From: Saccharibacillus sacchari DSM 19268
Lineage (GTDB): Bacteria; Bacillota; Bacilli; Paenibacillales; Paenibacillaceae
Direction of reading: 5' to 3'
DNA: 64,000 bases
Assembly (NCBI RefSeq): GCF_000585395.1
Contig: NZ_KK073875.1
Coordinates: forward strand, 1,268,407 to 1,332,406
Of the stretch, positions 7,971-61,959 are shown in pieces; the first letter of the stretch is position 1, and every line of letters starts with the position of its first letter. A program made the position numbers and the translations under genes. The notes under the pieces were generated by a model, which made no database searches, was not told where the DNA came from, and saw only the letters and a list, made by a program, of their open reading frames with translations.

Positions 7971-8144
7971 GGGGAAGCGTGGCGGGCTGCGGGAGAAATT
8001 GCCAGCATAGGCTTCCGAAGTGCATTTCTTCGAAATGCTTCACCAAACGCTGTCTCACTCGGAAAACTGGAATGAAATTTAAATGGAAGTTTTCCGAGTT
8101 CAAAGGCGTTTTGACCTGAATTTCTCCCTCCGCCTTGCGCTTCG
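7971..8144. repeat. palindromic intergenic element, copy R1
   Basis: First of five copies of the same long imperfect palindrome. The outer stem is GGGAGAAATT with AATTTCTCCC; the middle is AAACGC with GCGTTT; the inner stem is CTCGGAAAA with TTTTCCGAG, around an AT-rich loop. The left arm has an extra insert of about 44 bases (7999-8044) that itself contains a hairpin around TTTCTTCGAAA. It lies between two convergent genes and begins eight bases after the stop of the stalk-domain gene. Confidence 0.85.
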
Positions 8145-8194
8145 TGGTGGGAGTTAGGAAAAAGAAAAGGCAAAAGAAATATAAAATCAAAAAT

Positions 8195-8818
8195 TCAAGG
8201 GCGGCGTTCTAACGCTAGTTTCACGCCGAAGCCGAGAAGGACGAAGCCGGTGATGCCTTGCATGACGTTTTGTACGGTTGGGCGTTTGAGCCAGGCGCCG
8301 ATGCGGTCGAGCAGGCACACGTAGAAGACCATCCAGATTACGGTCATGATCGTGTAGGTCAGGCCCATCAGCAGGAAAGGCAGCAGAGGCTTGGCTCCGG
8401 CGACAAGGAATTGGGGCAGGAACGTCAGGAAAAAGACGGCGACTTTCGGGTTCAGCACATTGGTCAGCATGCCCTGGAGCAGCGGCGAACGGCCTTGATG
8501 GCGGTTATGGCTTGCTGTTTGCGGGGTTTGTTTGGCTTTCCGCAGCGCGAGCAGCGACATGATGCCGAGATAGATCAGGTATAAGGCGCCTGCGTATTTG
8601 AAAATGGAGAACAGCAGCGCGGACTTGACGATTAAGGCGGATAGGCCAAGCACCGCAGCGACGGTATGCACAAGCGTACCACCCGCGCTACCCAGTACCG
8701 TCTGAAGCCCCCCTTTTCGACCGTATAAAATCGTATTCTGCGTAGCCAGCCCGGTATCGGGTCCCGGCAGCAGGATCAGCAGAAACGACATCAACATAAA
8801 TAAGAAAAAGTGTTCCAT
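8195..8818 (-). CDS. LysE/RhtB family amino acid exporter
   Basis: 207 aa from ATG 8818, preceded by AGGAGGTACGGAG; longer in-frame readings lack a ribosome site. Six hydrophobic segments are visible. The family signature PGPDTGLATQNTILYGRKGG (about 17-36) follows the first helix, and LNPKVAVFFLTFLPQF (about 124-139) marks the fourth. Relatives export amino acids such as homoserine or threonine from the cytoplasm using the proton gradient; the substrate here is not determinable. Monocistronic as far as can be seen. Confidence 0.9.
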   Translation of the reverse strand: MEHFFLFMLMSFLLILLPGPDTGLATQNTILYGRKGGLQTVLGSAGGTLVHTVAAVLGLSALIVKSALLFSIFKYAGALYLIYLGIMSLLALRKAKQTPQTASHNRHQGRSPLLQGMLTNVLNPKVAVFFLTFLPQFLVAGAKPLLPFLLMGLTYTIMTVIWMVFYVCLLDRIGAWLKRPTVQNVMQGITGFVLLGFGVKLALERRP

Positions 8819-9071
8819 CTCCGTACCTCCTATTAGCTTGTCTTGAATAAATCGAAGGTTTACGTTCGACGGGCGAAACCATTCATTAATCCGAAACAAG
8901 GTCAAAGTAGTGGTGAATTTTATCTGGTAGCATTTTATCACAGGAAAGCGAGAAAAATACGATCCGCGACGTGGTGAAGAATCGAAGATTGAGCAGTCCG
9001 CAAGACATACTTACAGAGAGATTGACCCCTTTGACGTCGGAAAACTGCTACAGCCCGCTCGTTTGTCCGGT

Positions 9072-9977
9072 TCAGGATTCGTCGCCGAGTACGCGCAAAC
9101 TCTCCGGAAAAGCAGCCAACAGCTCCTTATTCGCCTGTACCAACTTGTTCTGATACTCCCGATAATCCGGGCTAAGCACGATCAGATTGGGAATGAAAAC
9201 CTCTGCATATCCGCTCCGACGCTGGAACTCCCGCATCGCGCGCATCGCCTGCCCCGCCGGACTTGCTTGATATTCCGGGCTTTGTCGATAAACCAAATAG
9301 GCTTCGATGCTTTCACGTTGCTCTTCCAACTGTTGACGGGGATTGTCCAGCGTCCGCTTCATCGCTGCGTCCTGCTCACGCCATCCCTCTTCACTCCAGC
9401 CTTCCGACACGATCTGAACATGTTCCTCCGCTTCGTCAAACCATCCGTTCTCCTCCACCTGCTCCAGAAATTCGATGATGCGCAAATAAGCAGACGTCTG
9501 CTCGACGGTCGTCATTTTTATATCCAAAAAAGGACCGAAATGTACATCCAAATAGGCTCCGAACGCACCGGGAAAAGCTTGACGCAGCCGCTCCCGAACA
9601 GGGAATGCGTGATCCAACCGCTGTCTTATTCGCTCCTGCTCCTCCGCCGAAACAGACTCGTATCCATGCGTCAGCATTTCATCGAACACGTCTCGCTGGA
9701 CCTGAAGACTACGCAGCGCAAGTTCTACACGATCTCGACATTGCTCCAGTACCATCCGTCGCTCCTCGCCTTCGGCTGCCAACACTTTTCGAATCTCCGC
9801 ACTCCCGAGTCCCAACCGCCGAAACAGCGCAATCTCCCGCAACCGCGCTACATCCGATTCCGTAAAATTCCGATACCCGTTCTCCGCGTATTGCGGCTGA
9901 ATCAGACCTTGCCGTTCATAATAATCCACCGCTTTTCGAGTCAACCCGCAAGCCTCGCAAACTTCGCGTAACTGCAC
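9072..9977 (-). CDS. MerR family transcriptional regulator
   Basis: 301 aa, GTG start (9977) with GGGGGTG upstream. The N-terminal winged helix-turn-helix is typical: LREVCEACGLTRKAVDYYER, then GLIQPQYAENGYRNFTESDV and LREIALFRRLGLGSAEIRKV (about 3-68), followed by a dimerisation helix (about 75-120). The long C-terminal region (about 120-301) is helical, rich in Trp/Glu/Arg, and could be an effector-binding domain; it shows no cysteine cluster of the metal-sensing kind. The adjacent LysE exporter on the same strand is a possible target. Confidence 0.9.
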   Translation of the reverse strand: MQLREVCEACGLTRKAVDYYERQGLIQPQYAENGYRNFTESDVARLREIALFRRLGLGSAEIRKVLAAEGEERRMVLEQCRDRVELALRSLQVQRDVFDEMLTHGYESVSAEEQERIRQRLDHAFPVRERLRQAFPGAFGAYLDVHFGPFLDIKMTTVEQTSAYLRIIEFLEQVEENGWFDEAEEHVQIVSEGWSEEGWREQDAAMKRTLDNPRQQLEEQRESIEAYLVYRQSPEYQASPAGQAMRAMREFQRRSGYAEVFIPNLIVLSPDYREYQNKLVQANKELLAAFPESLRVLGDES

Positions 9978-10060
9978 ATCGTCACCCCCATATCGAGTCT
10001 ACTTTCATCCTAAACCCACTCCCCGGGGACAGGTCAATATCCAAAAAACCAACCAAAAAA

Positions 10061-10290
10061 GGAGCCGGATAACCGGCTCCTAGAGTGTCGAGAAAGTCCA
10101 CGTAGCTGGAAGACAGAAGGCGTAGAGAGAAATTCAGTGAAAGACGCCTTTGAACTCGGAAAATTCCTTATTAACATTCAATCCATTTTCCGAGTGAGAC
10201 AGCGTCTTGAACGAATTTCTCTCGGAGCCTTCTGTCTTCCCCCGCACACGTAACTTTCGAGAGCAACCTCAGAGCCGGTTGTCCGGCTCC
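10061..10290. repeat. palindromic intergenic element, copy R2, with terminator hairpin in each arm
   Basis: Same family as R1, inverted relative to it. Core stems: GAGAGAAATTC with GAATTTCTCTC, AAGACGC with GCGTCTT, and the inner CTCGGAAAA stem. The distal arms carry GGAAGACAGAAGGC (10108-10121) and its exact reverse complement (10227-10240), found in no other copy. Both ends carry a GGAGCCGG...CCGGCTC hairpin (10061-10080 and 10271-10290). The left hairpin is followed by six T on the minus strand and acts as a plausible terminator for the BNR lipoprotein gene, whose stop codon touches the right hairpin. Confidence 0.9.
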
Positions 10291-11102
10291 TATCCCCCTT
10301 CAACGGTCGCGCTCCGCTCAAACGTCCACGTGCGCCCTTCAACCGTGATCGACCAACTGCGACCTACTCCGTCGGAGAGGCGCTTGGTTTTCCAGATCAG
10401 TCCGTTCAGTTCGCCCTGCTCGCTTTGCAGCGGATCGGACCAAGTCGCTCCGCCGTCGGCGGTTACATAGAATAATAACGGATTAACGTCATGTCCATCA
10501 GCGGCATAGCCGGTCTGTGCAATAAACACGCCGAGCTTCGTACCTTCAAACAGGATCGGAGTCTTCGGTTCGAACCAAGCTCCACGAAAATCGGCAGGAA
10601 TTTTCAGTTCAGTCTTGTTCCAGTTGGCTCCGCCATCGTTCGTCTCGTAAAGATTCGGGTCACCCGACTCAAGCGCGTCGACCGCCACCCAGCCTCGGTT
10701 CGTATCTGCGAATCTGACGGCTCTGACTGCACCGGACGGGAATGAACCTGTTTGCGAATCGCCAATCTTTGCCCATGTTGCTCCTGCGTCTTCGGTTCGG
10801 TAAATCGTATTGTCTACATCCAATGCGTCATCCGCTTGCGATTCTATTTTCCAACCGGTAAGGCCGTTATCTAAATATATTTCTTGCGAAGGCTCCGGCT
10901 TGGCTGCCTCGGTCTTGCTTGATGTGGACGGTGCTTCTTTTCCTGCGGGTTCGTAGACCACCGAAGAAGGGGGGACGGGTAACGGCGAGGTGCTTTTTTG
11001 CGAAAGTCCGTCTCCAACCGTACAGCCTGCGAGCAGACCTCCTGCAAGAACCAAAGCGGCCAGCCAGCTGGCATTTATCGAAAAGCGATGTGGTGTATTC
11101 AT
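10290..11102 (-). CDS. lipoprotein with BNR/Asp-box repeats
   Basis: 270 aa from ATG 11102 (AGGAGG nine bases upstream). A signal peptide ends in the lipobox LLAGC (Cys at about 27), followed by a Ser/Pro/Lys-rich linker to about residue 75. Then come Asp-box type repeats of a sialidase/YCF48-like beta propeller: YRTEDAGATWAKIG, YETNDGGANWNKTEL and FYVTADGGATWSDP. Too few blades are present for a full sialidase, and no catalytic residues can be assigned. Probably attached to the outer face of the membrane; function unknown. The stop codon abuts repeat R2. Confidence 0.85.
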   Translation of the reverse strand: MNTPHRFSINASWLAALVLAGGLLAGCTVGDGLSQKSTSPLPVPPSSVVYEPAGKEAPSTSSKTEAAKPEPSQEIYLDNGLTGWKIESQADDALDVDNTIYRTEDAGATWAKIGDSQTGSFPSGAVRAVRFADTNRGWVAVDALESGDPNLYETNDGGANWNKTELKIPADFRGAWFEPKTPILFEGTKLGVFIAQTGYAADGHDVNPLLFYVTADGGATWSDPLQSEQGELNGLIWKTKRLSDGVGRSWSITVEGRTWTFERSATVEGG

Positions 11103-11177
11103 GATGTTTAACCTCCTCGTTCGCCGCCAGTATAGCAAACTATGGAAGCCGGAAAGTGACAGCACGCACCTACATTG

Positions 11178-12545
11178 TCATTTTGAGGTTAAAATTCGGT
11201 AACAAGTGCCCAATACCTCATAACTTTTGAACCCGAAAGAGACGTTGATCGCAAAGGTCAAACGGATTCCCTCCCCTGCCATCTGCACGGTATAAGTCAC
11301 CACATAAGGCGTTTCGATATAGCGCAGGGTTAGTTGTAGAACAGCCGTGCCGCCAACGATTCGTTCGACCGAAGTCACGACGCGTTGGCGGTGCAGCATC
11401 AAGTCTTTTACGAACACGCCTTCCGTCTCCACCGATCGGTCATATGCAAAGGGAAGGGTTTCGCTGCGTGCCTCTGTTCCTCCATACTCCATCCTCAGAT
11501 CAAAGCCATCGGGCAGGGGGCGGAACGTAACAGCGTGCAGATTCGCAGGATTATCGTCCAACTCATACGTTTGGTCCATATGAAAAGGCAGTTCCGTGAT
11601 CTCCCCCGACAACTCGAAAATCCGATCCAACAGCGTTTGCAGCTTGGTCATACTCGGAAAAGCACAATTAGCCGCGACAACGAGATCATACTTGGGCGAA
11701 ACCAGACACAATTGACCGAACGATCCGTCTCCCCGGTATGCGCCAAAGCGGCAAAGATGGAACTGAAAGCCGTATCCCTGCCGGGAATCGATCCGCTGCG
11801 GCGAAACGCCGAGACGGTTGTCGCTTTGCTCCGCGGAAGCCAATGTGACGTATTCAGCCGACACGACCCGCTGTTCGTTGTAGGTTCCGCCGTTAAGCAG
11901 CATCTGCCCGAACTTCGCCACGTCCTCCGTAGACAAGCTTAAGCCCATCCCTCCGGCGGTCACGCCGAGCGGACAAGTTTCCCAGACGGGACGGGCGATA
12001 CCCAGCGGTTCGAACAGCGTCGGCATCAGAAAATCGACCAGATTCATGCCCGAGACGCGTTCGACGATCGCCGACAGCATATACGCGGACATCGTGCTGT
12101 AGCGGTAATGCGTACCCGGCTCCTTTTCCACGGACTGCGCCAAAAAAGCCGATGCCCAGTCCTGCTGCGACACTACGATCGGATAAATATCCTCTTCGTG
12201 TCCCGCGGTCATCGACAACAAATGGCGGACGCGCATATCGGACAAGTAAGGCGTCATATCGTCGGGAAGCTTATCCGGGAAAAAGGAGATAACGGTATCG
12301 TCCAACTTCAACAGTCCTTGGTCGCACGCAATACCGACGGCGATTGAAGTGAAGCTTTTGCTGAGCGAGTAGAGCAATTGCGGCACGCCGCGTCGATAAG
12401 GCTCCCGATACCACTCCAGTAAAGTCTGACCTTTTTGCAGCAGAACGAGACCGTTGACTTCAAGCTTGGAACGTTCGATAAAATCGGGGAGTTCGGTGTA
12501 CGGGTTGGTAGAGGTAGGCAATGAGTTCTCTCCTTCGCGCTTCAT
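11178..12545 (-). CDS. serine hydrolase of the beta-lactamase/class C family
   Basis: 455 aa, no signal peptide, so probably cytoplasmic. The nucleophile motif SxxK is seen in LYSLSKSFTSIAVGIA (about 60-75). YRYSTMSAYMLSAI (about 140-153) corresponds to the Tyr-containing second motif (YxN, here YST). The third motif is weak (DGSFGQLCLV). The C-terminal approximately 120 residues form a beta-rich extension. Relatives are esterases, peptidases or penicillin-binding proteins. It starts one base after the stop of the DUF45 peptidase gene upstream, so the two form an operon. Confidence 0.85.
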   Translation of the reverse strand: MKREGENSLPTSTNPYTELPDFIERSKLEVNGLVLLQKGQTLLEWYREPYRRGVPQLLYSLSKSFTSIAVGIACDQGLLKLDDTVISFFPDKLPDDMTPYLSDMRVRHLLSMTAGHEEDIYPIVVSQQDWASAFLAQSVEKEPGTHYRYSTMSAYMLSAIVERVSGMNLVDFLMPTLFEPLGIARPVWETCPLGVTAGGMGLSLSTEDVAKFGQMLLNGGTYNEQRVVSAEYVTLASAEQSDNRLGVSPQRIDSRQGYGFQFHLCRFGAYRGDGSFGQLCLVSPKYDLVVAANCAFPSMTKLQTLLDRIFELSGEITELPFHMDQTYELDDNPANLHAVTFRPLPDGFDLRMEYGGTEARSETLPFAYDRSVETEGVFVKDLMLHRQRVVTSVERIVGGTAVLQLTLRYIETPYVVTYTVQMAGEGIRLTFAINVSFGFKSYEVLGTCYRILTSK

Positions 12546-12546
12546 C

Positions 12547-13206
12547 TTACATCACCATGAAATTTCCGTACCGGTTCAGATACGCTTCGCGCTCCTTGTA
12601 ATCCGGCAGCACGCTGCCCAGCTTGCGCCAAAACGAACGGTCGTGGTTCATATGGTGAAGATGGCAGAGCTCATGCACGATGACGTAATCGATCGCCTGC
12701 ACGGGCGCCATCGCCAGCAGATAATTGAAGTTGAGCCTTTTTTTCGAGTCGCAGCTCCCCCATTTGGTCGTCGATTCGATGATTTCGATCGATTTCGGTT
12801 CGACCTTGAGTTGCTTGGCATAAGCGCCGATCCGCTCATTCACGACTTTTTTACAACTGGCAAAATAGAACTTCTTGAGGTCGGCGCGCAGCTGCTCTTC
12901 CGTCCGTCCTTCGGTCGGAATCAGCTCGTCCAGACGGCAGCGGCGGCCCAGATGCAGAAAATCCCCTTCGCTGCCTTCGCGGTATTCTTTCGGCTTGGGA
13001 GCTTCGCGCGCCTTGTCTTGCTTCGCTTTGTTTTGCAAAATCCAATCGGCTTGCAGCGCGACCGCCTGTTGAATCGCTTCTTCCGGCATGCCGTTCGGCG
13101 CTTTGACCGTGACGAGACCGCTCGGATCGATCTGGACGTAGATCTTTTTGCGTTTGGCGTATTCGACGTGGAATTCGATGGTTTGGTCGTTGTGTCGGAT
13201 GTTCAT
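12547..13206 (-). CDS. M48-like metallopeptidase, YgjP/DUF45 (WLM) family
   Basis: 219 aa from ATG 13206, preceded by AAAGGAGCCTCCC; a longer reading from 13254 lacks a good site. The zinc motif is VIVHELCHLHHMNHDRSFW (about 170-188), that is HExxH plus a third ligand in the following H-x6-H segment. KWGSCDSKKRLNFNYLLA (about 142-160) is the second diagnostic block. The N-terminal half is a beta domain (IEFHVEYAKRKKIYVQIDPSG). Members are predicted cytosolic zinc proteases, sometimes linked to restriction systems, but none is nearby. First gene of an operon with the serine hydrolase. Confidence 0.9.
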   Translation of the reverse strand: MNIRHNDQTIEFHVEYAKRKKIYVQIDPSGLVTVKAPNGMPEEAIQQAVALQADWILQNKAKQDKAREAPKPKEYREGSEGDFLHLGRRCRLDELIPTEGRTEEQLRADLKKFYFASCKKVVNERIGAYAKQLKVEPKSIEIIESTTKWGSCDSKKRLNFNYLLAMAPVQAIDYVIVHELCHLHHMNHDRSFWRKLGSVLPDYKEREAYLNRYGNFMVM

Positions 13207-13358
13207 GGGAGGCTCCTTTGCCGCTTTTTTTCGATAGACGGGACGTTCGTTCACTCGTTACTCTTAGCATAAAATGTTAAATACTTTACGGCAAATGTTC
13301 ATCGATAAAAATATAAAGAAAACCGCTCGGGGCGTAAACCGATAAAACTCGATTTTTC

Positions 13359-13387
13359 TTGACGCCATGCGGGTTCAACCGAATATT
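13359..13387 (+). promoter_or_regulatory. candidate promoter of the SLH repeat protein
   Basis: TTGACG (13359-13364), a 17-base spacer and AATATT (13382-13387) stand about 75 bases before the start of the surface protein gene. Confidence 0.5.
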
Positions 13388-13463
13388 TTAAATTGATTTA
13401 TACGCAAAATATAGTATGCTCGACATAACTTCACACATGCCTATACGAAAAGAGGGGAATATG

Positions 13464-16400
13464 ATGACTGCAAACTGGACTAGGCAAAAAAGGTTCCGGC
13501 AGTTCGGATTGATCGTGCTTTGCTTGCTGATCGGCTTGGGGACGGTCCATCCGGTTTACGCGGCGCCTCCCGGCGTGCCTACCGTGACAACCGGACAAGA
13601 AACGATCACCATCAGCAATTATACGTCTGGCGCCACGCTCAAAGTCTATCGAGCAGACGGCGGCTCTCCCGTATGGCAGGAAGCCAACGTTATCACCGCA
13701 ACCAAAACGATTGCGTTGCTTCCGTATCCCAATTCTTATTACGTGACGCAAACGGTAGCCGGCGAAGAAAGCACGAATACGCCTTTTTTCAATACAACGC
13801 TGCGCACGCCTGTCGCGACCGCCGGCATCCGCTCGATCGACGTCACGAACGTTTCGGGCAATACGACATTGGAACTGCATCGCGTCTCGAACGGTTCGCT
13901 CGTCTCGACGACGGTATCCAATCAGGGCGGCGGCGTTTACCGCTTCGAAAATGTGATCCCCGACAGTTCTTTGTACTATATCGTTCAGAGTTATGGCGGA
14001 CAGACCAGTACCAATACTCCGTTTTTGACTTCCAAACTCAATACCCCCGTAGCAACGGGCGGCACGGAATACGTGGACGTGACCAACGTGGATACCGATA
14101 TCGGTTCTGTGCTCACATTGTATGATTCCGACGGCGTTCTGTCTTCGAATTCGTTGACCAACCTCGGTAACGGAACTTACCGTTTCGCCAACGTGCCCCC
14201 TGCGTCGGGTTATTACGTCACGCAGACGCTGAACGGAATGCAAGCCAGCTCCAATGTGGTAACCGTGTCTCCCGATCTGCCAGCCGCGCCCGTTATCGCG
14301 GCAGCGGACGAGTCCTTAAACGTCAGCGGTATCGTCCCGGGCGCCAAACTGAAACTCTATACCACGACAGGAGCTCCGGTTCGAGAGGTTCCCGGCGTAA
14401 CCTCAGCCACCTACACGCTCGAAAACGTGCTGCCGAACACGATCGGTTACTATGTCACGCAAACCGTGAATAACAAAGAAAGCGTCAATTCCAACTTCGC
14501 TAATCCTACCCTGCACATCCCCGCCGCTGCGGCGGGAGTCGGCCACATCGACGTGAGCAACGCAACGGAAGGCGCGACGCTGCACTTGTATGACGCTTCG
14601 AACAGTCAATTGGTGTCTTCCGCGCCGGTCGATCAAGGAGGAGGCGTGTATCGGTTCGAAAACGTGGTACCGCGCAGCGGCTATTATTACGTGACCCAAT
14701 CGCTAGGCGGACGCGAAAGCCTCAATACGCCGTTCGTGAACGCTCTGCTGCCGACGCCCGTCCTGACGGGCGGAATCCGATACGCCGACGTCAGCGACGT
14801 TTATCCGGGCGCGGCGATCACTTTGTATAGCGAAACGACCCCGATCTCGTCCAATCCCCAATCTCTGGGTGACGGAACATACCGCTTCAGCGATCTGGAA
14901 GCCGGCGTTCCTTACTACGCGGTGCAATCGATCAACGGCGTGCTGAGCCCCGCTTCCAATATCGTATCGGTACAGGAGCTTCTGCCGCCCGCCCCCCAAG
15001 CGTCCGGAGCGGAAGAATCGATCACTGTGAGCGGCTATTCGCCCGGCGCCACGTTGAAACTGTATCGGGCCGACGGAACGGAAATTCAAACTTCGGTCAA
15101 CGTGATGGGCTCGGTGTACGCGATGGAAAACGTACTGCCCGATCCGCAGTATTATTACGTGACCCAGACCGTGGGCGGCAAAGAAAGCCTGAACTCGGAA
15201 TTCGCGAATCCGACCTTGCGCACGCCGAGCGTGCAAGCGGGCGTCGAGTACATCGATGTGGGCAACGTATCTTCAAAAACGGCTTTGACGCTCTACGACG
15301 CCGAGAAAGGTACGGTCGTCTCGCAAACGTACACGATGCTCGATAACGGAACCTATCGTTTCAAGGACCTTGCGCCCCGGTCCGGCTTCTATTACGTCAC
15401 CCAATCCGCGAACGGCATCGAAAGCGTCAACTCGATATTCGTGAATCCGGTTTTGCGCACGCCTTCCGCGACCGGCGGTCTGGAGTCGTTGGATGTCGGC
15501 AACGTCTATCCGGGCGCCGAGCTTAAGCTGTTCCGAAGCGGGCAGCTTCAACCGTTGACGCTGCAAGCGGTCGCCGTCGGCGACGGCACGTACCGCTTCG
15601 GCAATATTTCGGCGAAAGGAAATTATTATGTCGTGCAGTACGTCGACGGCGTAGCCAGTCCCCGTTCGAACGCCGTCGAAGTTACCGTCAGAAGCACGCA
15701 ACCTCCTTCCGGAAACGACGGAGAAGCGTCTTCGGCACAGCCGCCGTTCATCCTGCCTTCCGCACCTTCGGCTGCGCCGAACGGCGTGGACATCCTCGTG
15801 AACGGCAAACTGCAAAAAGCCGGCACCTTGAGCGAAAGCATGCAAGGCGACCGCAAAGTGCAAACGATCCTGGTCGATCCCGAACGGGTACGCGCCGTGC
15901 TGGACGCCGAAGGAACGGGCGCGACCGTTACGATTCCGTTCGCGGGCACGAGCGATGCGGACGTGATGATCGGACGTTTGAGTGGCGAGCTGATCCGGGA
16001 AATGGCCCGGCGCAAAGCCGTTCTCGTCATCGACACGCCTCTCGGCCTTTATCGGCTGCCCGCCGAAGAGATTCCGGTCGCACCGTCCGAAACAACCGCT
16101 TCGGCAAACGAATCCGCGAATGTCCGGATCGAAATTTCGATCGCCAAAGCAACCGATGCGGATGCTGCGCGGATCCGAACTCTGGCGGCGCAGGAAGGCC
16201 TGACCGTGCTGCAAAATCCGGTCAGCTTCGAAATTTCGACGATCGCGAACGAGAAGCGCACGACCGTCGACCGGTTCGATCGGTACGTGGAGCGCCTTAT
16301 TCCGTTAAGTTCGGGAACGGATGCGGGCGAAAATATCACCGCAACGGTTCTGGGCGATAACGAACTCACTCCGATTCCGACCCGCGTGATCGCGCAAAAC

Positions 16401-17027: not shown

Positions 17028-17060
17028 ATATGAATATCCGTTTTGACGGACGGAACCAAA

Positions 17061-17093
17061 AAGAGCCTGATATTTAGCGCATCAGGCTCTTTT
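17061..17093 (+). terminator. Rho-independent terminator after the SLH protein
   Basis: AAGAGCCTGAT and ATCAGGCTCTT form a perfect 11-bp stem with a 9-base loop and a TTTT tail, 33 bases after the stop. Confidence 0.85.
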
Positions 17094-18291: not shown

Positions 18292-18312
18292 TCTGAATGA
18301 CACAAAAACGGC

Positions 18313-26891: not shown

Positions 26892-27166
26892 TTAAAAGAT
26901 ACAGAGCGTCTCAACGTGTCGAGAAAGTTACTTCGGCGGGGGAAGCGAGAAGACTGCGAGAAAAATTCGTTCAATTCGCTGTCTCACTTGGAAAATGGAT
27001 AGGATTTGAATAAGGAATTTTCCGAGTTCAAAGGCGTCAACATGGTGCTGAATGTTACCGCAGGTTTTCTTCGAAAACCTGTATTTCACTGAATTTCTCT
27101 CTCCGTCTTCTCGCTTCCAGCTACGTTAGGCTTTATCGACATGTTGAGATGCAAGACATCTTTTAA
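26892..27166. repeat. palindromic intergenic element, copy R3
   Basis: It nearly fills the gap between two divergent regulator genes. Outer ends TTAAAAGAT (26892-26900) and ATCTTTTAA (27158-27166) match as inverted repeats. Distal arms carry GGAAGCGAGAAGAC (26941-26954) and its exact reverse complement (27105-27118). The core has the family TGTCTCA and TTCAAAGG internal loops and the CTYGGAAAA/TTTTCCGAG stem. The right arm has an extra insert of about 45 bases (27039-27082) with a hairpin around TTTTCTTCGAAAA, at the mirror position of the insert in R1. Confidence 0.88.
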
Positions 27167-49226: not shown

Positions 49227-49355
49227 TCGGGGTGGCGCTGCGGGAGAAATTCGTTCGAGGCGCTGTCTCACCCGGAAAAGTCAATTGAATTTTTAGTGGA
49301 GTTTTCCGGGTTCAAAGGCGTCTCTCACTGAATTTCTCCCTTCGCTGGGCTATCG
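49227..49355. repeat. palindromic intergenic element, copy R4 (core form)
   Basis: Shortest copy. Outer stem GGGAGAAATTC with GAATTTCTCCC, then GAGGCGC with GCGTCTC, then CCCGGAAAA with TTTTCCGGG. The last stem has C-G where the other copies have T-A, a compensatory change. No matched distal arms are apparent. It lies in the divergent gap between the DUF2262 and FAD-reductase genes. Confidence 0.85.
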
Positions 49356-52799: not shown

Positions 52800-52870
52800 A
52801 AGCCACTCTCCCTCTGTTTTTTTCCAGAATAACGCCGCATTATAAATCGAAAATAAACGCCTGCCCGGGA

Positions 52871-52908
52871 TCCGTTTATCTTCCGTTTAGCTTGGCGGGC
52901 TATATAAT
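52871..52908 (+). promoter_or_regulatory. promoter with tandem 11-bp direct repeats (response regulator site)
   Basis: TCCGTTTATCT (52871-52881) is followed directly by TCCGTTTAGCT (52882-52892), a 10/11 match, one helical turn apart, the classic layout of an OmpR/PhoB-type dimer site. A TATAAT -10 box stands at 52903-52908. The repeats take the place of the -35 region, so activation and autoregulation are likely. Confidence 0.65.
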
Positions 52909-52932
52909 GAAAAAAGAAAGGGGTGGGCGGAT

Positions 52933-54665: not shown

Positions 54666-54683
54666 CGAACGCTCAGCCCGGGT

Positions 54684-55163: not shown

Positions 55164-55314
55164 GGGTGATCCTCCTTCAGTTCTTCGGTTGATGCCCTTA
55201 TGTTAACAGCGGAAAATAAATTCAAGGTAAACGATAGATGGGGGGGTTCGAAGCGGGGGCGCTGCGTTGGAGTAGGGGTAAGAAGAGCGAAAATGCTGAG
55301 GTTTCTCATCGTTC

Positions 55315-55361
55315 AACGTCTGCCTCATAGCTTGACCAAGCTACTGGAGGCAGGCGTTTTT
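55315..55361 (+). terminator. strong terminator without an obvious gene before it
   Basis: AACGTCTGCCTC and GAGGCAGGCGTT (one G-U) form a 12-bp stem with an inner TAGCTT/AAGCTA pair and a T tail. On the plus strand nothing but a doubtful short ORF lies between it and the divergent gene at 55163, so it may end a small RNA or act as an attenuator in the leader of the lipoprotein gene at 55662. Confidence 0.7.
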
Positions 55362-55661
55362 GGTTTGTTTCACGGATCAAAACGGATTGAAAGCGCTCTT
55401 ATTTTTTAGGGGATCGAGGTTGTTTTTCACAGTTTGAAATCGGTCGAAATTTTCTTCTTGACCTGCGTGCGTTTAACTGCGAAAATGAACCGCTGAAACG
55501 TTTGTTTGTCGCATTTCCGGCGCCGAAGCCGATATATAAGAATAGTACCTTTTCAACGCTAAACGTAAGGTTGCGGCCGCCCGAAATGCATGCAAAGCGC
55601 GTGTATTTCAGGCGAACGCAATCTTCCGATTAAAGCTTATTCTGTTAAGGAGAACCCGCTC

Positions 55662-57155
55662 ATGAAAGCACTTAAAATCGCCGGCCTGTTGTCGCTGCTC
55701 ATCGTCGGCGGATGCGGACGGATCGCTTCTCCGGGCGATCTGCTGCACGCTCCCAATCTCGCGAACGAAGAACAAGCTTTGTACCGGGCGGTGCAGCCTT
55801 TCCTGCCCGCAGGCTACCAGCTCACCACGCCCGACCAATCAGACCAGGGAAGCGCGATTCGCCTGGCCGACCTGGACGGCGACGGTGACGAAGAACTGAT
55901 CGTTTCCTATAAAAAGCCCGATACCGATTACGAGGTCAACGTCATGATCTTGACCCAGCGCGGCGGCGCCTGGCAAAAGGCCGACCAAATTACGGGCAGC
56001 GGGATGAATCTCGATTATCTCGGAATCAAGCCGCTGACGGACCGTTCGTCGTCCGAACTGCTGCTCGGTTACGACAGCGGCGGCTCGGGATTGCCCCGAG
56101 AGCTGTTTGTCTACTCCTTCTCTGGCGGCCAAGCCGAAGAAATCTTCCATGAGTCGTACGACCAGATCGCGGTAGGCGACTTGATCGGCAGCGGCATGGA
56201 ACAGATTGCGGTCGTCCCCCCTGCCGTCGATGCCGAAGATACGCATTCGCAGATTCGTCTGATCGGCGAAAAAAACGGCAAACTGTCCCTGTTGGCCGAG
56301 AGTCGAACCGACGGCTCCGTGACCAACATGCAGATCGAACGGGCCGCGACGAATATCGACGGCTTGTTCGCCCAAATCATGAGCACGACCCGATCCGGTT
56401 ACGCCGTACTGCTGACCTGGGAAAACAATGATCTGGTGAATATCCTGTCCCTTTCGCAAAAGTCTTACGACGCACGCGTGTCCAGACAAGACTTGAAACT
56501 GGAAGCTCCCGACCGTAATCCCGATCTCTCCTCTACGGAAAACAAGTGGTGGATTGATTATCCGGCTAAAAATCGGGATGTCGACGGCGACGGCATTTTG
56601 GAAACGGCGCTGCCGACTCCGCTGCCGAGCGTCGAAAGCGCGTCCGGCACGCCCCAGCTTTGGAGCGATTCGTATTACCGTTGGAACGGGAATCAAACGA
56701 TGGAATTCGTCGAAGACCGATTCTGGCAGTGGGGCTACGACCTGCGCATTCCGAGCCGCTGGCTGGGCGAATACCGGATCGAGCTTCCGACCGGCAGCGA
56801 AAACGCCGCCGGCGAAGTACGCTTTACCTATTCCGCGAAAAACGATACCGGAAATACCGTTGCTCTGCCCCTGCTGACCTTGCGCCAAATGACGAGCGAG
56901 GCGTGGAACGCATTAAAACCCGTGTTGGAAAGCCGGCAAAGCGAATATGTCGTGCTCGGCAGCACTGGCTCGGTGATCCCGGGCAACTCCTCCCTCGTTA
57001 CGGTTGCTTTGCTTCCGGACGGCAACGGAGATTTGACCGGAAAGGCCGCGCGCGATTATGAAGCGCTCCGTCTCACGATTGCCGAAGTCCATCAGTTGGC
57101 GGGAATCAGCGCGGATGACGAAGAGGAGGCGAGCAGCGATGTTGAAAAGCATTAG
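55662..57155 (+). CDS. FG-GAP/VCBS-type lipoprotein
   Basis: 497 aa from ATG 55662 (TAAGGAG upstream). Signal peptide with lipobox IVGGC (Cys about 18). FG-GAP-like calcium loops: RLADLDGDGDEELIVSY (about 67-83) and NRDVDGDGILETALPTPL (about 304-321), giving a beta-propeller-like repeat protein. Near the C-terminus is LLPDGNGDLTGKAARDYEAL. Similar proteins in Paenibacillus lie directly before a regulator/kinase pair. Here the next gene is a kinase overlapping its last 17 bases, with no regulator between. Probably an extracytoplasmic sensor partner; this is inference. Confidence 0.8.
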   Translation: MKALKIAGLLSLLIVGGCGRIASPGDLLHAPNLANEEQALYRAVQPFLPAGYQLTTPDQSDQGSAIRLADLDGDGDEELIVSYKKPDTDYEVNVMILTQRGGAWQKADQITGSGMNLDYLGIKPLTDRSSSELLLGYDSGGSGLPRELFVYSFSGGQAEEIFHESYDQIAVGDLIGSGMEQIAVVPPAVDAEDTHSQIRLIGEKNGKLSLLAESRTDGSVTNMQIERAATNIDGLFAQIMSTTRSGYAVLLTWENNDLVNILSLSQKSYDARVSRQDLKLEAPDRNPDLSSTENKWWIDYPAKNRDVDGDGILETALPTPLPSVESASGTPQLWSDSYYRWNGNQTMEFVEDRFWQWGYDLRIPSRWLGEYRIELPTGSENAAGEVRFTYSAKNDTGNTVALPLLTLRQMTSEAWNALKPVLESRQSEYVVLGSTGSVIPGNSSLVTVALLPDGNGDLTGKAARDYEALRLTIAEVHQLAGISADDEEEASSDVEKH

Positions 57156-58584
57156 GGGACGACTTCTGCTTCAGATCGGCCTGCTGCTTCTGACGATCGT
57201 AGTGCTGCTCGAAATGATCTTTGCCGCAGCCGTGTCGACGTATTACTTCGACAGTGCCAGGCAGATCGTTCAGTCCCGCGCCGTCACGGCGGCAACCTTG
57301 TCCAACCAGTTCATGGAAGGCTACACGCTGCCCGAGCGAGCCCGTTACATTCTGGAAAACCTGGTTCCGAGCGAAAGCAGCCGCGTCGAGGTACTGGATC
57401 TGCAAGGACGCACCGTCGTCGATTCCTACGGCTTCTCCTCGTCCAAACGGATCCGGACCGCGGATGTGCGTATTGCCCAACAAGGCGGAGTCGGCAGTTA
57501 CTCGGGTTATTCCAATGCGTTCAAGCAGCGCATCATGGCCGTATCCAGCCCGCTCGTCAGCTACGGCGAAGTGATCGGCACATTGCGCTTCTCCGTGTCG
57601 ACGGAACCTTTATACGACGAAGTCGCCAAACTGGTTGTATGGGCGATCGGGATCGGCGCCGCCGTGCTGCTGCTCGGCTTCGGCCTCAGTCTGATCATCG
57701 CCCGCCAGATCGTCGGGCCGATCAAGGAGCTTACCGTCATTTCCCGAAAAATGGCGACCGGAGACTTTACAGCAAAAGCCGTGCGCCAGAACGACGACGA
57801 AGTCGGCACGCTGGCCGATTCGTTGAACCATATGAACGAAGAATTATCCAAAAGCGAGAAGATGAAAAACGACTTCATCTCGACCGTTTCCCATGAACTG
57901 CGCACGCCGCTCACCTCGATCAAAGGCTGGGGCGAAACGCTGGTCGTCGGCGGATTGGATGACGACGAGACGACCCTGAAAGGGCTAAGCGTCATTACGA
58001 ACGAGACGGATCGGCTGATCGGACTCGTCGAAGACCTGCTGGATTTTTCCAAATATCAAGCCGGGGAAATCAAGATGCGCTCCGTGCCGGTAGACTTGAA
58101 CCTGCTGCTTCAGCAGTTGGATTTGCAGTACAGTTGGGCAGGCAACAAGCGGGGCGTTACGCTGAGTACCTACCTTCCCGACGAACCGCTTCCGATGCAC
58201 GCCGATCTCAATCGGCTGAAGCAGGTTTTCGTCAATGTGCTGGATAACGCGATCAAGTTCTCCGATCTCAACGGCGAAATCCGCATGACCGCATCGTGCG
58301 AAGACTTGCAGGTCCACGTCTCCGTGCAGGATGACGGCGAAGGCATTCCGGCCGAAGACCTCGAACGCATCGGCCGCCGCTTTTACAAAGGCAGCTCCAA
58401 AATGTCCGGCAGCGGCCTGGGGCTTGCGATCAGCAAAGAGATCGTCCGCCTGCACGGAGGACGGATCAAGATCGAGAGCGAGTACGGCATCGGTACGACG
58501 GTGACCGTGACGCTTCCGCTCGCGGTCGAAGAATTCATGTCGGGATCGGAAGTTGCGACGCATCTGGCTTCGTCGGACAAATGA
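57139..58584 (+). CDS. sensor histidine kinase without adjacent response regulator
   Basis: 481 aa from ATG 57139 (GAGGAGG upstream). Helix 1 (about 8-30), extracytoplasmic sCache/PAS-like domain (about 31-165: SSRVEVLDLQGRTVVDSYGF, IMAVSSPLVSYGEVIGTLRF), helix 2 (about 170-192), HAMP (about 193-245), HisKA STVSHELRTPLTSIKGWGET (His about 258), HATPase with N box LDNAIKFSDLNGE, G1 DDGEGIP, F box RRFYKGS and G2 GSGLGLAISKEI. Complete and likely active. Its cognate regulator is not in the window downstream; it may be the one at 52933 or elsewhere. Confidence 0.93.
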   Translation: MLKSIRGRLLLQIGLLLLTIVVLLEMIFAAAVSTYYFDSARQIVQSRAVTAATLSNQFMEGYTLPERARYILENLVPSESSRVEVLDLQGRTVVDSYGFSSSKRIRTADVRIAQQGGVGSYSGYSNAFKQRIMAVSSPLVSYGEVIGTLRFSVSTEPLYDEVAKLVVWAIGIGAAVLLLGFGLSLIIARQIVGPIKELTVISRKMATGDFTAKAVRQNDDEVGTLADSLNHMNEELSKSEKMKNDFISTVSHELRTPLTSIKGWGETLVVGGLDDDETTLKGLSVITNETDRLIGLVEDLLDFSKYQAGEIKMRSVPVDLNLLLQQLDLQYSWAGNKRGVTLSTYLPDEPLPMHADLNRLKQVFVNVLDNAIKFSDLNGEIRMTASCEDLQVHVSVQDDGEGIPAEDLERIGRRFYKGSSKMSGSGLGLAISKEIVRLHGGRIKIESEYGIGTTVTVTLPLAVEEFMSGSEVATHLASSDK

Positions 58585-59074
58585 GGCGGAGAGGCTACTC
58601 GACTCGTATTGTGGAGAAGGTCTTGTTCCTGTCGCCGTCTCGAAGCTTTTCTTCGCGAGCCGTTTTGTCAGTAAGGCCGGCGGCTAGTACCTTGACTTGC
58701 CCCGGCACGACTGCGAAAAAGTTCTTTGCTGAGAACAAAAATTCGGCAAAATCTACTTCCATCGAGGTTTGAAGACATGCCCTAGCGGATTGCATGTCCG
58801 TTAGAACGCTGATTTTCAGGATTTTCAATGCGTAACGGATCGTACGGACGCTTAGACCGGAAAAATGGATGAATCGGGGCAAAAATCAGCTTTTTTCACC
58901 GTTAAGCGTCCTCTCAATCCGTTAAAAATCTCAACCTCCCGATTCGTGGCGTTAAGAGTCATATCGGTCCGTTACACGCCATCGTCTCCGGATCACCCTT
59001 GCTCGATCGGCCGAACGAACCGATGCGGAGTCGGGACTACGCTAACCTCTCGAAGCGGATATCATCAATCGATC
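58585..59074. other. 490-base region without a gene, with repeated CCGTTA words
   Basis: No credible ORF. CGTTA-like words recur at about 58798, 58833 (reverse), 58899, 58919, 58949 and 58969. GGACGCTTA (58846-58854) and TAAGCGTCC (58903-58911) are exact inverted repeats. A terminator hairpin follows at 59075. It could hold a transcribed non-coding RNA or a decayed element; nothing is certain. Confidence 0.35.
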
Positions 59075-59105
59075 AAAGGCGAACCCCAGCGTTCGCCTTT
59101 TTGTC
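59075..59105 (+). terminator. Rho-independent terminator between convergent genes
   Basis: AAGGCGAAC and GTTCGCCTT form a 9-bp stem with a 6-base loop and a T tail on the plus strand. The nearest plus-strand gene ends about 490 bases earlier. Confidence 0.7.
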
Positions 59106-59127
59106 GATTTTCCATATGACATCCACC

Positions 59128-60669
59128 CTATTCCAAACTGTTCCAAGCACGGACGGCCTTTTCGGCGCCGGTCGCAAAAAGACGGTCGCCTTGAAAGCAC
59201 AAAGCCTGGATGCCGCCTTTGAGCCCTTGAAAATAACGGGCTTCGCCGTCCAAAGACAGTTCGATGATCGTGCCGTTGGCCAGGCCCAAAAGCAGGTGAT
59301 TACCGTCCGGGTGCCAGGCGGCGGTGTAGACGGCGCTGCGGAATGTACCGTAGACCGGCAGGCGGTATACGAATTCGCCGGTATGCGCATGCAGCAGCGC
59401 GAACGATTCCGGACCGTGCAGGTCGTCGGCAAGTCCTCCGACGGCCAGGTAACGGCCGCACGAACTGAGCGCGAGCGCGTAGACGCGCATGCTCTCATGC
59501 AGGTTTCTTTTCCAAACGAACCTGTCTTCCGCGCGATCGAAGCAGGCTGCCGTCCAATAACCGTCCGATCCGTACAGCTTTCGACCGTCGGGCGAAACGG
59601 CCAATTCTTCGATCGCCGAACCTTCGTACGATCCGAACGCGTCGGCGAATACCTCTTGCGAGATGATCGTTCGCCAGCTTCGCGACCGATAATCGACTTC
59701 GATCAGGTGATGCGCCGCCGGATCGAGCGCTTCGCGCAGCCAGGGATATCCGTCGACGGCTTGGTCGGATATCCGCAATCGGCTGCCGTCGACGATCGCG
59801 CACGGCGAGTTTTCGTCGAAATCCCGGTCGCTCTGGTCTTTGCGCGGCACCGCGGCCAAAAACGATTCTTGCTCCGGTACCCATGCGAACGGCGGACTGA
59901 GCGGGAATGGCACGGCGGAAAGCAATTCCAGCGGAGACGGCCTGTACAGATTGACGTGCGCCCGGCGTCCTTGAGACAGCGGTCCGTCCGACAGCAGCGC
60001 TTCGCGGTCGGATCGCAGCGCAAGTATGCGGCCTCCTCCGGTCCGTTCGTCCGTACATTCCAGCGCATCGCCGCTTCGAAGCTGGATGCCGGGAACGCTG
60101 GAGATATAGGAGCCTCCTTTGTAACCGTGCAGCAGTTGTTCATCGTCCAACGCGATCAGCGCCGAGTAAGAAGCCCGAGGTTCGGACTTGGCGACCAGCC
60201 GTTCTTTTTTCCGGTAACGCATCGCCGAAGTTCCTTCGTTCCAAGCGATCAGATGAACCGGCACCGTCCCTTTGGCCGCCGTATCGGGCAGCGTATACAA
60301 CGGCGCAGCATGCTCGGGAGGAAGCGGGCTGTAAATATCGCCGCTTTGCAGATCCAGTGCGCGCCAACCGAACAGGGCGGCGAGGCGAAGCCGAAGCTGC
60401 GCATACGCCCACAGCGCCCCGCGTGCTCGCAGATCGTTCCATGCCGCATGCGTGTCCAGCGCATTGCAGCCGGCTTCGCCGTCCGCGTCTCCTTGCGCAT
60501 CGATATGCGACAGGTCGATACTCATCCAGCGGCCGTCCGACTCGTAGAGCCATTGACGTTCCGAGACTTTTTTCAAAACCGGAAACCCTTCAAGCAGCAG
60601 CCGGCATTCCTCTAACGTTTTCGTATCGGCATAATCCGGCAAAGCGCCGATTCTGACGTCCTGGCTCAT
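59128..60669 (-). CDS. WD40-like repeat protein
   Basis: 513 aa from ATG 60669 (AAAGGAG eleven bases upstream). N-terminal approximately 190 residues are alpha/beta and unrecognised (TLEECRLLLEGFPVLKKVSE). The rest has repeated strands of WD40/PQQ-like blades: SAIEELAVSPDGRKLYGSDG (about 373-392), RVYALALSSCGRYLAVGGLA (about 421-440), SAVYTAAWHPDGNHLLLGLA and GGIQALCFQGDRLFATGAEK, ending VRAWNSLE. Cytosolic; probably a protein-interaction propeller. Divergent from the toroid-protein gene. Confidence 0.8.
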   Translation of the reverse strand: MSQDVRIGALPDYADTKTLEECRLLLEGFPVLKKVSERQWLYESDGRWMSIDLSHIDAQGDADGEAGCNALDTHAAWNDLRARGALWAYAQLRLRLAALFGWRALDLQSGDIYSPLPPEHAAPLYTLPDTAAKGTVPVHLIAWNEGTSAMRYRKKERLVAKSEPRASYSALIALDDEQLLHGYKGGSYISSVPGIQLRSGDALECTDERTGGGRILALRSDREALLSDGPLSQGRRAHVNLYRPSPLELLSAVPFPLSPPFAWVPEQESFLAAVPRKDQSDRDFDENSPCAIVDGSRLRISDQAVDGYPWLREALDPAAHHLIEVDYRSRSWRTIISQEVFADAFGSYEGSAIEELAVSPDGRKLYGSDGYWTAACFDRAEDRFVWKRNLHESMRVYALALSSCGRYLAVGGLADDLHGPESFALLHAHTGEFVYRLPVYGTFRSAVYTAAWHPDGNHLLLGLANGTIIELSLDGEARYFQGLKGGIQALCFQGDRLFATGAEKAVRAWNSLE

Positions 60670-60795
60670 GATTACATTCACTCCTTTTCCGCGAAGAATT
60701 AGGATAAAACCATCATATAACGGACGTTTCGCCTTGGGCAAAAGTCGCGCGTCAGCTATACTGCAAGTAATGGATTTTCGCAAAGGAGAATGGTT

Positions 60796-61689
60796 ATGCC
60801 TACCCGACAAGCCGTTACGGCCGAGATCGAAGCTTCAATCGCATTCCTTGAAAACACCTCCCATTTCGAGCGCGAGCATGACGAAATCAGCCGCGGCAAA
60901 TGGAACGGAGCCTGGTGGCATATGGCCGCTTTGTATGAAATGGGCGAGGTCCGGCGCATCCCGGAGTCCGCGATTGTTCAGGCGAAGCATTTGCTTCGGA
61001 CGCGCATATGGCCCGTGTTCGTCATTCGAAGCAGCGATGCGCCCGCGCGCGAAGAAGACATGGACCGCTGGGACTGCTGCCACTGCGAACTTGCCGTTTT
61101 TTATCAGATTCTTGCCGCCTACGGCTGCGACGTCGATACGGAAATGCCTTGGATCCGCGAATGGCTGCTGAAGCATCAACTGCCGGACGGCGGATTGAAC
61201 TGCGACCCCGAGGCCTATGTGCATTCCCGCAAAAGCTCGATCGTCTCCACCCTGCCGCCGCTCGAAGCGATACTGCGGCACACGCATCGGCCGTTCACGG
61301 AGCAGGAAAAAGCGTTTTTGGACGAAGGCGCGCGCTACTTGATCGAGCATCGGCTGGTCTGTTCCAAAACTAGCGGCGAAGTGATTAGTGCAGAATGGCT
61401 GAAGCCGTGTTTCCCGAGATTTTTCGAATATGACCTGCTGCGAGGGCTGTCGTTCCTGACGGAGTGGTCAAGGAAACGAGGAAAGCCGCTGCCGGACGGG
61501 TTCGTCGAAGAAGCGATGGCGCGTGTCGCTGATTATTCGGACGGGGAAAACGTACGGATCGGACGGCAGGTCTGGGACCCGGAAGGCGAATGGGGCGGCG
61601 AGACGTTCGGGTTGCTGGAAGCCCTGCCGGGAATCGGAGAAACGTCGGAACAATTAAGCCGGGAGCTGAAAGCCTCGGTAAACAGGTAG
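60796..61689 (+). CDS. alpha/alpha-toroid (prenyltransferase/squalene-oxidase repeat-like) protein
   Basis: 297 aa from ATG 60796; ATG 60790 is too close to the AAAGGAG site. It is soluble. Helical repeats with the QW-like loops of terpene-cyclase/prenyltransferase toroids: RWDCCHCELAVFYQILAAYG (about 92-111), HQLPDGGLNCDPEA (about 129-142) and RQVWDPEGEWGGETFGLLEA (about 259-278). DRWDCCHC/NCD could bind zinc. A DxDD cyclase motif is absent, so it is more likely a glycan-lyase-like or binding toroid. Followed by repeat R5, whose right hairpin provides its terminator. Confidence 0.75.
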   Translation: MPTRQAVTAEIEASIAFLENTSHFEREHDEISRGKWNGAWWHMAALYEMGEVRRIPESAIVQAKHLLRTRIWPVFVIRSSDAPAREEDMDRWDCCHCELAVFYQILAAYGCDVDTEMPWIREWLLKHQLPDGGLNCDPEAYVHSRKSSIVSTLPPLEAILRHTHRPFTEQEKAFLDEGARYLIEHRLVCSKTSGEVISAEWLKPCFPRFFEYDLLRGLSFLTEWSRKRGKPLPDGFVEEAMARVADYSDGENVRIGRQVWDPEGEWGGETFGLLEALPGIGETSEQLSRELKASVNR

Positions 61690-61695
61690 AACGTC

Positions 61696-61959
61696 GCGAA
61701 GCAAAAAGACCGCTCTTTGTAGAAGCGGTCTTCAGGCTGTCGGGAAAGTTACGGCTGCGAGTGAATAAAGAAAGCTGCGAAAGAAATTCGTTCAAGACGC
61801 TGTCTCACTCGGAAAATGGATTGAACTTAAATAAGGAGTTTTCCGAGTTCAAAGGCGTCTTTCACTGAATTTCTTTCTCCGCCTTCTTTATTCCAGCTAT
61901 GTTGAGGTTTCTCGACACATTAAAGACCGCGCTCCATAGAGGCGGTCTTTTTGCTTCGC
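61696..61959. repeat. palindromic intergenic element, copy R5, with terminator hairpin in each arm
   Basis: Longest matched copy. CGAAGCAAAAAGACCGC at its left end (from 61698) is exactly repeated in inverse at the right end. Left hairpin AAGACCGC...GCGGTCTT (61705-61732) has a T run for the minus strand; right hairpin (61922-61950) has a T run for the plus strand. Distal arms GAATAAAGAAAGC (61763-61775) and GCCTTCTTTATTC (61881-61893) match each other and no other copy. Core: GAAAGAAATTC/GAATTTCTTTC, AAGACGC/GCGTCTT and the CTCGGAAAA stem. Lies between convergent genes and serves as terminator for both. Confidence 0.9.

What the first reader, a model, noticed from the sequence alone, without database searches (positions are those of the whole stretch)
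7971..61959. Five-copy family of long palindromic intergenic elements (R1-R5) with arms that co-vary within each copy
Copies at 7971-8144, 10061-10290, 26892-27166, 49227-49355 and 61696-61959 share a core: GAAATTC, AAGACGC and CTCGGAAAA stems interrupted by constant unpaired words (TGTCTCA facing TTCAAAGG). Compensatory pairs are directly visible: the inner stem is C-G in R4 where others have T-A; the outer stem is GGGAG/CTCCC in R1 and R4, GAGAG/CTCTC in R2 and GAAAG/CTTTC in R5. The distal arms match within a copy (14 of 14 bases in R2 and R3, 12 of 13 in R5) but differ between copies. This points to selection on a hairpin, to arm-templated repair, or to both. Copies lie in convergent, divergent and same-strand gaps, so they are not tied to one gene context. 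I know no named family that matches.
Basis: partly seen in the sequence, partly recalled or inferred. Interest (0 to 1): 0.85.

Follow-up and report, generated by a model that had tools for sequence, protein, structure and literature searches.

The report
Hairpin mobile elements at transcription terminators
The five long palindromes are copies of a short mobile DNA element, abundant in this bacterial genus, that appears to insert at the hairpins where transcription of genes stops and to copy the whole hairpin to both of its sides.

Summary
In detail: R1-R5 are real and their arms co-vary. They belong to a family with at least 150 copies (scoring cap) in this Saccharibacillus genome and in S. 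endophyticus, found in 14 of 16 genomes of the genus and 43 of 148 of the family (31 outside the genus). No Rfam family matches. Best explanation: a non-autonomous transposable element of IS1182 type that inserts at intrinsic terminators and duplicates the whole hairpin. (1) Type I ends read TGTCGAGAAAG; resident IS1182-family elements end in TGTCGAGAAAC. (2) Both are often flanked on each side by the same terminator hairpin. (3) For R2 and R5 some other species carry that hairpin once, without an element; another own copy is absent from S. endophyticus, which has one hairpin there. Copies exchange whole cores and modules at orthologous sites, so part of the covariation is exchange. Across genera, paired changes are nearly all Watson-Crick (73 double changes; 2 G-U, 5 A-C), hinting at DNA-level pairing; within the genus the sign is mixed. 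Neighbouring copies face each other (18 of 18 pairs, about 12 independent sites). IS1182 targeting of stem-loops is in print, with hairpin duplication only as a drawn pathway. The mobilising enzyme is unresolved: several copy-rich genomes show no IS1182 gene.

The parts
7966..8156 (+). R1: element with the left-arm module and eroded ends, directly after the stop codon of the gene ending at 7963
   Evidence: in S. endophyticus (G015) the interior is deleted at the orthologous site. Outer limits by eye.
10060..10081 (.). left copy of the terminator hairpin at R2 (AGGAGCCGG..CCGGCTCCT)
   Evidence: a single hairpin of this kind of stem in 4 of 7 outgroup loci, no element seen in any of the 7
10082..10271 (-). 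R2: type I element, end TGTCGAGAAAG at 10086-10096
10272..10289 (.). right copy of the terminator hairpin at R2 (GAGCCGG..CCGGCTC)
26917..27141 (+). R3: type I element with the right-arm module
   Evidence: site without element in G014 (60 bp against about 290 bp; no hairpin seen there)
27039..27083 (+). right-arm module of R3 (two small hairpins), absent from the orthologous copy in G015
49227..49355 (+). R4: short copy with eroded ends; the orthologous G015 copy has a different, mostly paired stem
61706..61732 (.). left copy of the terminator hairpin at R5 (AAGACCGC..GCGGTCTT)
   Evidence: single hairpin with the GACCGC..GCGGTC stem and no element in G012 and G014
61733..61922 (+). R5: type I element, left end CAGGCTGTCGGGAAAG, right end TTTCTCGACA (minus-strand TGTCGAGAAA, 61908-61917)
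61923..61949 (.). right copy of the terminator hairpin at R5 (AAGACCGC..GCGGTCTT), followed by a T run

Best explanation
R1-R5 are copies of a non-autonomous, palindromic transposable element (about 190 bp, more with one or two optional arm modules), spread by a transposase of the IS1182 type. The target is the hairpin of an intrinsic terminator. On insertion the whole hairpin is duplicated, so a new copy lies as hairpin - 4 to 6 nt - end TGTCGAGAAAG - element - end - hairpin. Later the left hairpin and the ends decay (type II copies). Shown by sequence: ends, hairpins on both sides, sites that hold one hairpin and no element in other species, preferred polarity. Inferred: exchange of cores and modules between copies, that an IS1182-type enzyme did the work, that the element acts as a DNA hairpin or cruciform, and that joining happens at the 5' feet of the target stem-loop (the pathway b drawn for IS1272 by Wan et al. 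2017, PMC5678879).
For: Ends: of 176 copies, 30 left and 53 right ends match at least 9 of 10 letters of TGTCGAGAAA against 0-2 in controls; of matches of at least 8, 37 of 55 left ones start 46 nt and 67 of 73 right ones 45 nt from AAATT. The genome has IS1182-family transposases (NF033551, 460 bits for L249); their IS end in TGTCGAGAAAC or TGTYGACAAA, with perfect direct repeats of a terminator hairpin on both sides in 4 of 8 IS loci examined: 21, 20, 26 and 31 bp. At L247 the order is hairpin-element-hairpin-IS-hairpin. A hairpin abuts type I ends in 50 of 101 (left, median gap 6 nt) and 53 of 101 (right, median 4 nt), against 16 and 7 in shuffles. Flank-to-flank direct repeats score at least 10 in 22% of 176 copies against 2% of mixed pairs. 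Sites: own copy L239:8748-8870 is absent from G015, which has one hairpin where own has two near-copies; R2, 4 of 7 outgroup loci with such a stem once; R5, G012 and G014 with such a stem once; G007 has a copy after the same gene between perfect 24-bp repeats of another hairpin. Polarity: 18 of 18 neighbouring pairs face each other.
Against: Copy number and IS1182 do not go together: copies in 14 of 16 Saccharibacillus genomes, IS1182 hits in 5 of 16 in each of two searches, 4 of them full-score, and none in G015, G014, G007 or G013, which have 37 to at least 150 copies. Element and IS ends differ at the 11th base (G against C). Only 43 of 176 copies match at least 8 of 10 letters on both sides, and 1 of 35 type II copies does. 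A hairpin aligns with itself directly and inverted; inverted flank repeats are as frequent (28% at score 10), so many flank pairs cannot tell duplication from an inverted copy. Four of 8 IS loci show no hairpin repeat. Three of 7 R2 outgroups and five of seven element-free R5 outgroups have other, displaced or no terminators. In 69 copies the only gene pointing at the element lies on its right, against 44 on its left, which a simple sense-strand rule does not explain. The cross-genus core occurs in genera whose outer arms do not show these ends by eye. No movement was observed.
Confidence: 0.78

Rival explanations
1. A structured RNA or 3'-UTR regulatory element selected as RNA; mobility is secondary.
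For: Fold z -6.8; invariant words CGCTGTT and CAAAGGCG across genera; covariation, score not reached in 500 shuffles; sense position after stop codons (58 of 63 convergent cases have the nearer stop codon on the left). Within the genus G-U cells (17, without the constant U-G pair) outnumber A-C cells (9) on the plus strand, as a plus-strand RNA would give.
Against: Across genera 73 cells change on both sides, but besides one constant U-G pair only 2 cells are G-U and 5 are A-C, 13 otherwise unpaired, of 485; RNA helices usually show more G-U (general knowledge). In own unique copies A-C outnumbers G-U (7 to 1 in the inner stem, 18 to 10 in the arms). No Rfam match.
Confidence: 0.15
2. REP-like palindromes moved by a RAYT (Y1/HUH) transposase through single-stranded hairpins.
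For: High copy number, extragenic, hairpin with conserved mismatches, pairs in opposite orientation; alternating orientation in BIMEs is stated in the abstract of PMC2817692 (search listing).
Against: No Y1_Tnp gene in the genome; about 190 bp rather than the 20-40 bp of REPs; inverted ends and target hairpins on both sides.
Confidence: 0.04
3. Long palindromes with terminators at both ends arise in place by template switching (arm-templated repair) and do not move.
For: Arms match within a copy; nearly pure Watson-Crick changes across genera.
Against: The same core and ends at many unrelated sites; sites without the element and with one hairpin in related species; in 5 of the 6 double stem changes between orthologs the apical loop differs as a block too.
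Confidence: 0.06

Closest known systems
IS1182-family insertion sequences; IS1272 (Wan et al. 2017, PMC5678879: abstract, sections 22 and 24 and passages seen)
   Same: Stem-loop targets, in the three new insertions reported there downstream of or at the 3' end of genes; resident IS1182 elements here share the ends TGTCGAGAAA and terminator targets.
   Different: IS1272 replaces the stem-loop and leaves no duplication; here the whole stem-loop is on both sides, which that paper drew only as a possible pathway. The elements here are not seen to carry a transposase.
Bacterial MITEs (review PMC10969869, passages seen)
   Same: Short, ends shared with an IS, many intergenic copies.
   Different: Terminator hairpins as target, whole-hairpin duplication, a core with constant internal loops, exchangeable arm modules; the words IS1182 and Paenibacill- do not occur in the main text of that review.
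REP/BIME repeats with RAYT
   Same: High copy number, extragenic, hairpin with conserved mismatches, pairs in opposite orientation.
   Different: No Y1 transposase in the genome; length, ends and target duplication differ.

Membership tests
IS1182-derived MITE | terminal inverted repeats shared with an IS1182 element of the same genome | tested here: met
   TGTCGAGAAA in both; at least 9 of 10 letters in 30 left and 53 right ends of 176 against 0-2 in controls. Met for type I; type II copies mostly fail (1 of 35 on both sides at 8 of 10).
IS1182-derived MITE | same target and target duplication as the IS | tested here: met
   terminator hairpin on both sides of 4 of 8 IS loci, and of part of the elements
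IS1182-derived MITE | non-coding | tested here: inconclusive
   0 of 187 cores inside predicted genes (my own predictor); ORFs inside the elements were not examined one by one
IS1182-derived MITE | partner transposase present where copies are present | tested here: inconclusive
   full-score match in G000, G002, G003, G010; fragments in G008 and G012; not found in G015, G014, G007, G013
IS1182-derived MITE | mobilised in trans by that transposase | not testable with these tools
   needs a transposition assay
IS1272-type stem-loop replacement | target stem-loop lost, no duplication | tested here: not met
   stem-loop on both sides
REP/RAYT | Y1_Tnp (PF01797) transposase in the genome | tested here: not met
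   0 matches
REP/RAYT | GTAG or CGTC tag at one end | not tested
   feature taken from title and abstract of PMC3733652 in a search listing
Known Rfam RNA | match above the gathering score | tested here: not met
   0 in the window; at E up to 2 in 6 loci only two far-below-cut-off animal families

The most novel reading that the evidence does not exclude
The element moves as a DNA hairpin or cruciform: an IS1182-type enzyme reads structure, not only sequence, on both partners, joining a palindromic element at the feet of a palindromic target and so duplicating the whole stem-loop, preferably with the same end towards the terminator. The constant mismatches in an otherwise strictly paired stem tell the enzyme which end is which, and this need keeps the arms matched across Paenibacillaceae.
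Probability: 0.27. Interest if true: 0.82.

Novelty: new variant of a known kind. Interest (0 to 1): 0.62.

Why it matters
It gives sequence evidence, with empty sites and outgroups, for transposition that duplicates a whole terminator stem-loop, a pathway drawn but not shown for an IS1182-type element. Landing at a terminator and leaving one behind may be a safe haven (inference), which would explain how so many copies are tolerated. It also warns that strong 'compensatory' covariation among repeats can come in part from exchange between copies, not only from a structured RNA.

Tried and rejected
Known RNA family: Rfam at gathering score for the window and at E up to 2 for six loci gave nothing credible. 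RAYT: no Y1_Tnp. Plasmid and phage records: no match for R5. Type II as a separate family with its own IS: a pattern search for its end gave 35 places, which I did not pursue to a transposase; L101 suggests the same end in eroded form (by eye only). Enzyme by co-occurrence: IS1182 and copy number do not go together. Strand of a possible RNA from G-U against A-C cells: searches point in opposite directions, so I draw nothing from it. After my check I raised the RNA rival (0.12 to 0.15) and lowered the novel case (0.30 to 0.27) for that reason. Literature: ten searches (two of them returned no paper because of strict term counts) showed in their listings no description of this element; most subscription papers are not held, and an IS review that I looked up by DOI was not held. 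Papers seen: PMC5678879 (abstract, sections 22 and 24, passages), PMC10969869 and PMC9867790 (passages); all others in search listings only.

Dropped rows: 11 of 187 copies lack AAATT within 80 nt on one or both arms and were left out; one copy at a locus edge was left out of the context counts. The model alignment uses 32 of the 46 loci then held, chosen for lacking modules. Copies were found by a fixed core pattern in fetched loci, so diverged copies are under-represented. Counts over the 187 copies pool two species with many shared sites. Gene, terminator and hairpin predictions are my own simple scripts. Absence of the element in the outgroups was judged by eye in up to about 420 nt after the gene.
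Full report
WHAT IS THERE. The window lies in a 6,075,237-bp genome. All five copies are present as described. The core pattern CTGTCTCAYYYGGAAAA-loop-TTTTCCRRRTTCAAAGG has 109 exact matches in the genome and 0 for the reversed control. Of 39 genomes searched (own included) 3 match: own 109, G015 82, G013 1.

FAMILY SIZE. In the family it has hits at E up to 0.01 in 43 of 148 genomes and 9 of 19 genera, 31 of the 43 outside the genus (stricter filters, 24 candidates scored per genome). In contiguous stretches I count 19 copies in 280 kb of the own genome and 18 in 240 kb of G015, about 400 per genome by extrapolation. The stretches were chosen for synteny around known copies, so this is rough.

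ANATOMY. Going outward from the apical loop: stem CTCGGAAAA; unequal internal loop TGTCTCA against TTCAAAGG; stem GACGC; internal loop GTTC against TCACT; stem GAGAGAAATTC; a 3 x 3 internal loop TGC against TCC (positions 6 and 8 outside AAATT match in 3% of 176 copies, positions 2-5, 9 and 10 in 95-97%); outer arm; end TGTCGAGAAAG starting 46 nt (left) or 45 nt (right) from AAATT. Optional modules are a double hairpin in the left arm (23 of 120 own, 15 of 67 G015) and in the right arm (11 of 120, 6 of 67). Arms of type I: 102 of 176; type II with CCTRTTCG and eroded ends: 35; one counts as both, 40 as neither.

TERMINATORS ON BOTH SIDES. R5 is bordered by AAGACCGC..GCGGTCTT on each side and R2 by GAGCCGG..CCGGCTC. 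Over the family a hairpin abuts type I ends at a near-fixed gap: left 50 of 101 (quartiles 5-7 nt), right 53 of 101 (3-5 nt), with 16 and 7 in shuffled sequence. Type II copies have a hairpin more often on the right (21 of 34) than on the left (8 of 34), and so have the rest (24 and 11 of 41). Flank-to-flank repeats score at least 10 directly in 22% and inverted in 28% of 176 copies, against 2% of mixed pairs each. Some are plain direct repeats with unpaired tails, for example the 25-bp perfect repeat at L143; others align as well or better inverted, as palindromes can.

INSERTION BY COMPARISON. Own copy L239:8748-8870 has no counterpart in G015, where one hairpin GGAGCCGTTAATGGCTCC stands; own has GGAGCCGTTAATGGCTCC before and GAAGCCATTAATGGCTCC after the element. 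For R2, 7 outgroup loci were read: none shows the element, and 4 (G002, G003, G007, G008) carry one terminator with a GAGCCGG-type stem after the same gene; 3 have other terminators. For R5, G012 and G014 carry one hairpin with the GACCGC..GCGGTC stem and no element; G010 lacks the element and has such a stem only about 300 nt further on; G002, G003, G008 and G013 lack the element with other or no terminators there; G007 has a copy after the same gene between perfect 24-bp repeats of a different hairpin, which I take for an independent insertion. R3 is absent from G014. R1-R5 themselves all have a full or remnant counterpart in G015, so they predate that split.

THE LIKELY ENZYME. The genome holds IS1182-family transposases (NF033551: 460 bits for L249, cut-off 270). 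Their IS have ends TCAG(GC/AA/AC)TGTCGAGAAAC or TGTYGACAAA, and perfect direct repeats of a terminator hairpin on both sides in 4 of 8 loci examined (L247 21 bp, L248 20 bp, L249 26 bp, L283 31 bp; none found in L250, L251, L282, L284). At L247 the order is hairpin - element - hairpin - IS - hairpin, the first hairpin slightly diverged. Against this, IS1182 hits occur in only 5 of 16 genomes in each of two searches (6 together, 4 with a full-score match) and not in G015, G014, G007 or G013, so the partner was lost there or is another enzyme with like ends.

POLARITY. All 18 neighbouring pairs within 800 bp face each other (+ then -): 10 own and 8 G015, at least 6 of the latter orthologous to own pairs, so about 12 independent sites. 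In convergent gene pairs the nearer stop codon lies on the left of the element in 58 of 63 cases; outward-reading terminators are on the right only in 53 copies, on the left only in 19, on both in 26, on neither in 88 of 186. 0 of 187 copies lie in predicted genes; own contexts are 42 convergent, 70 co-directional and 8 divergent of 120, G015 21, 43 and 2 of 67 with one at an edge, where the window's gaps of 100 bp or more are 7, 22 and 11. One class does not fit a simple sense rule: 69 copies have only a right-hand gene pointing at them, against 44 with only a left-hand one.

WHY THE ARMS CO-VARY. In 41 orthologous pairs between own and G015 (flanks 87-99% alike) 10 inner stems differ, 6 on both sides and 4 on one. 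In 5 of the 6 double changes the apical loop differs too, as a block (identity 0.59-0.69), while the outer flanks stay orthologous. Loop identity is split: 10 pairs at 0.77 or less, 5 between, 26 at 0.92 or more. The left module differs in 16 of 41 and the right in 5 of 41. I infer that copies exchange cores and modules, so part of the visible compensation is exchange. Deeper in time the stem has been rewritten: among 27 copies (4 from other Saccharibacillus genomes, 23 from other genera) 73 of 485 cells change on both sides, 0 of 500 shuffles reaching the score, with CGCTGTT and CAAAGGCG invariant; besides one constant U-G pair 2 cells are G-U, 5 A-C and 13 otherwise unpaired. This near-absence of wobble intermediates hints at DNA-level pairing or template copying. 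Within the genus the sign is mixed: 17 G-U and 9 A-C cells in the 32-copy alignment, but A-C above G-U in own unique copies (7 to 1, 18 to 10).

COMPARISON WITH WHAT IS KNOWN. Wan et al. 2017 (PMC5678879) report that IS1272 targets stem-loops and replaces them without duplication, cite an IS review for palindrome targets of some IS1182 members, and draw a pathway in which the whole stem-loop is duplicated. The Saccharibacillus IS and these elements fit that pathway. The element is therefore filed as IS1182-like and MITE-like, a new variant; membership by mobilisation was not testable.

Noticed in passing
window 61691-61974 and G015 (L303): R5 with both terminators is identical between the two species over 284 bp while the surrounding 4 kb is about 94.5% alike; recent conversion, transfer or constraint.
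   Followed up: no
L114, L119, L123 (G055:C43:254796-255419): A tandem array of the cross-genus core with its terminators, period about 240-260 bp, in another genus.
   Followed up: no
L247, L248, and hits in G002 and G003: One IS1182 lineage has its transposase split over two reading frames in the four copies seen in three genomes; shared frameshifting or shared decay. Described only.
   Followed up: no
L247:1110-1380: A palindromic element and an IS1182 copy share one terminator, giving three copies of the same hairpin, one slightly diverged.
   Followed up: partly
L249:1361-1425: The IS end next to the target hairpin is itself a long palindrome with the end sequence on both sides, so a single IS end already looks like a miniature element.
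   Followed up: no
window 7018-8150: In G015 the gene ending at 7963 is missing together with the interior of R1.
   Followed up: no
L181 (G000:C1:4325738 and 4326607): Two minus-oriented copies with identical core lie 869 bp apart, a possible recent tandem duplication and the nearest same-orientation neighbours noticed.
   Followed up: no
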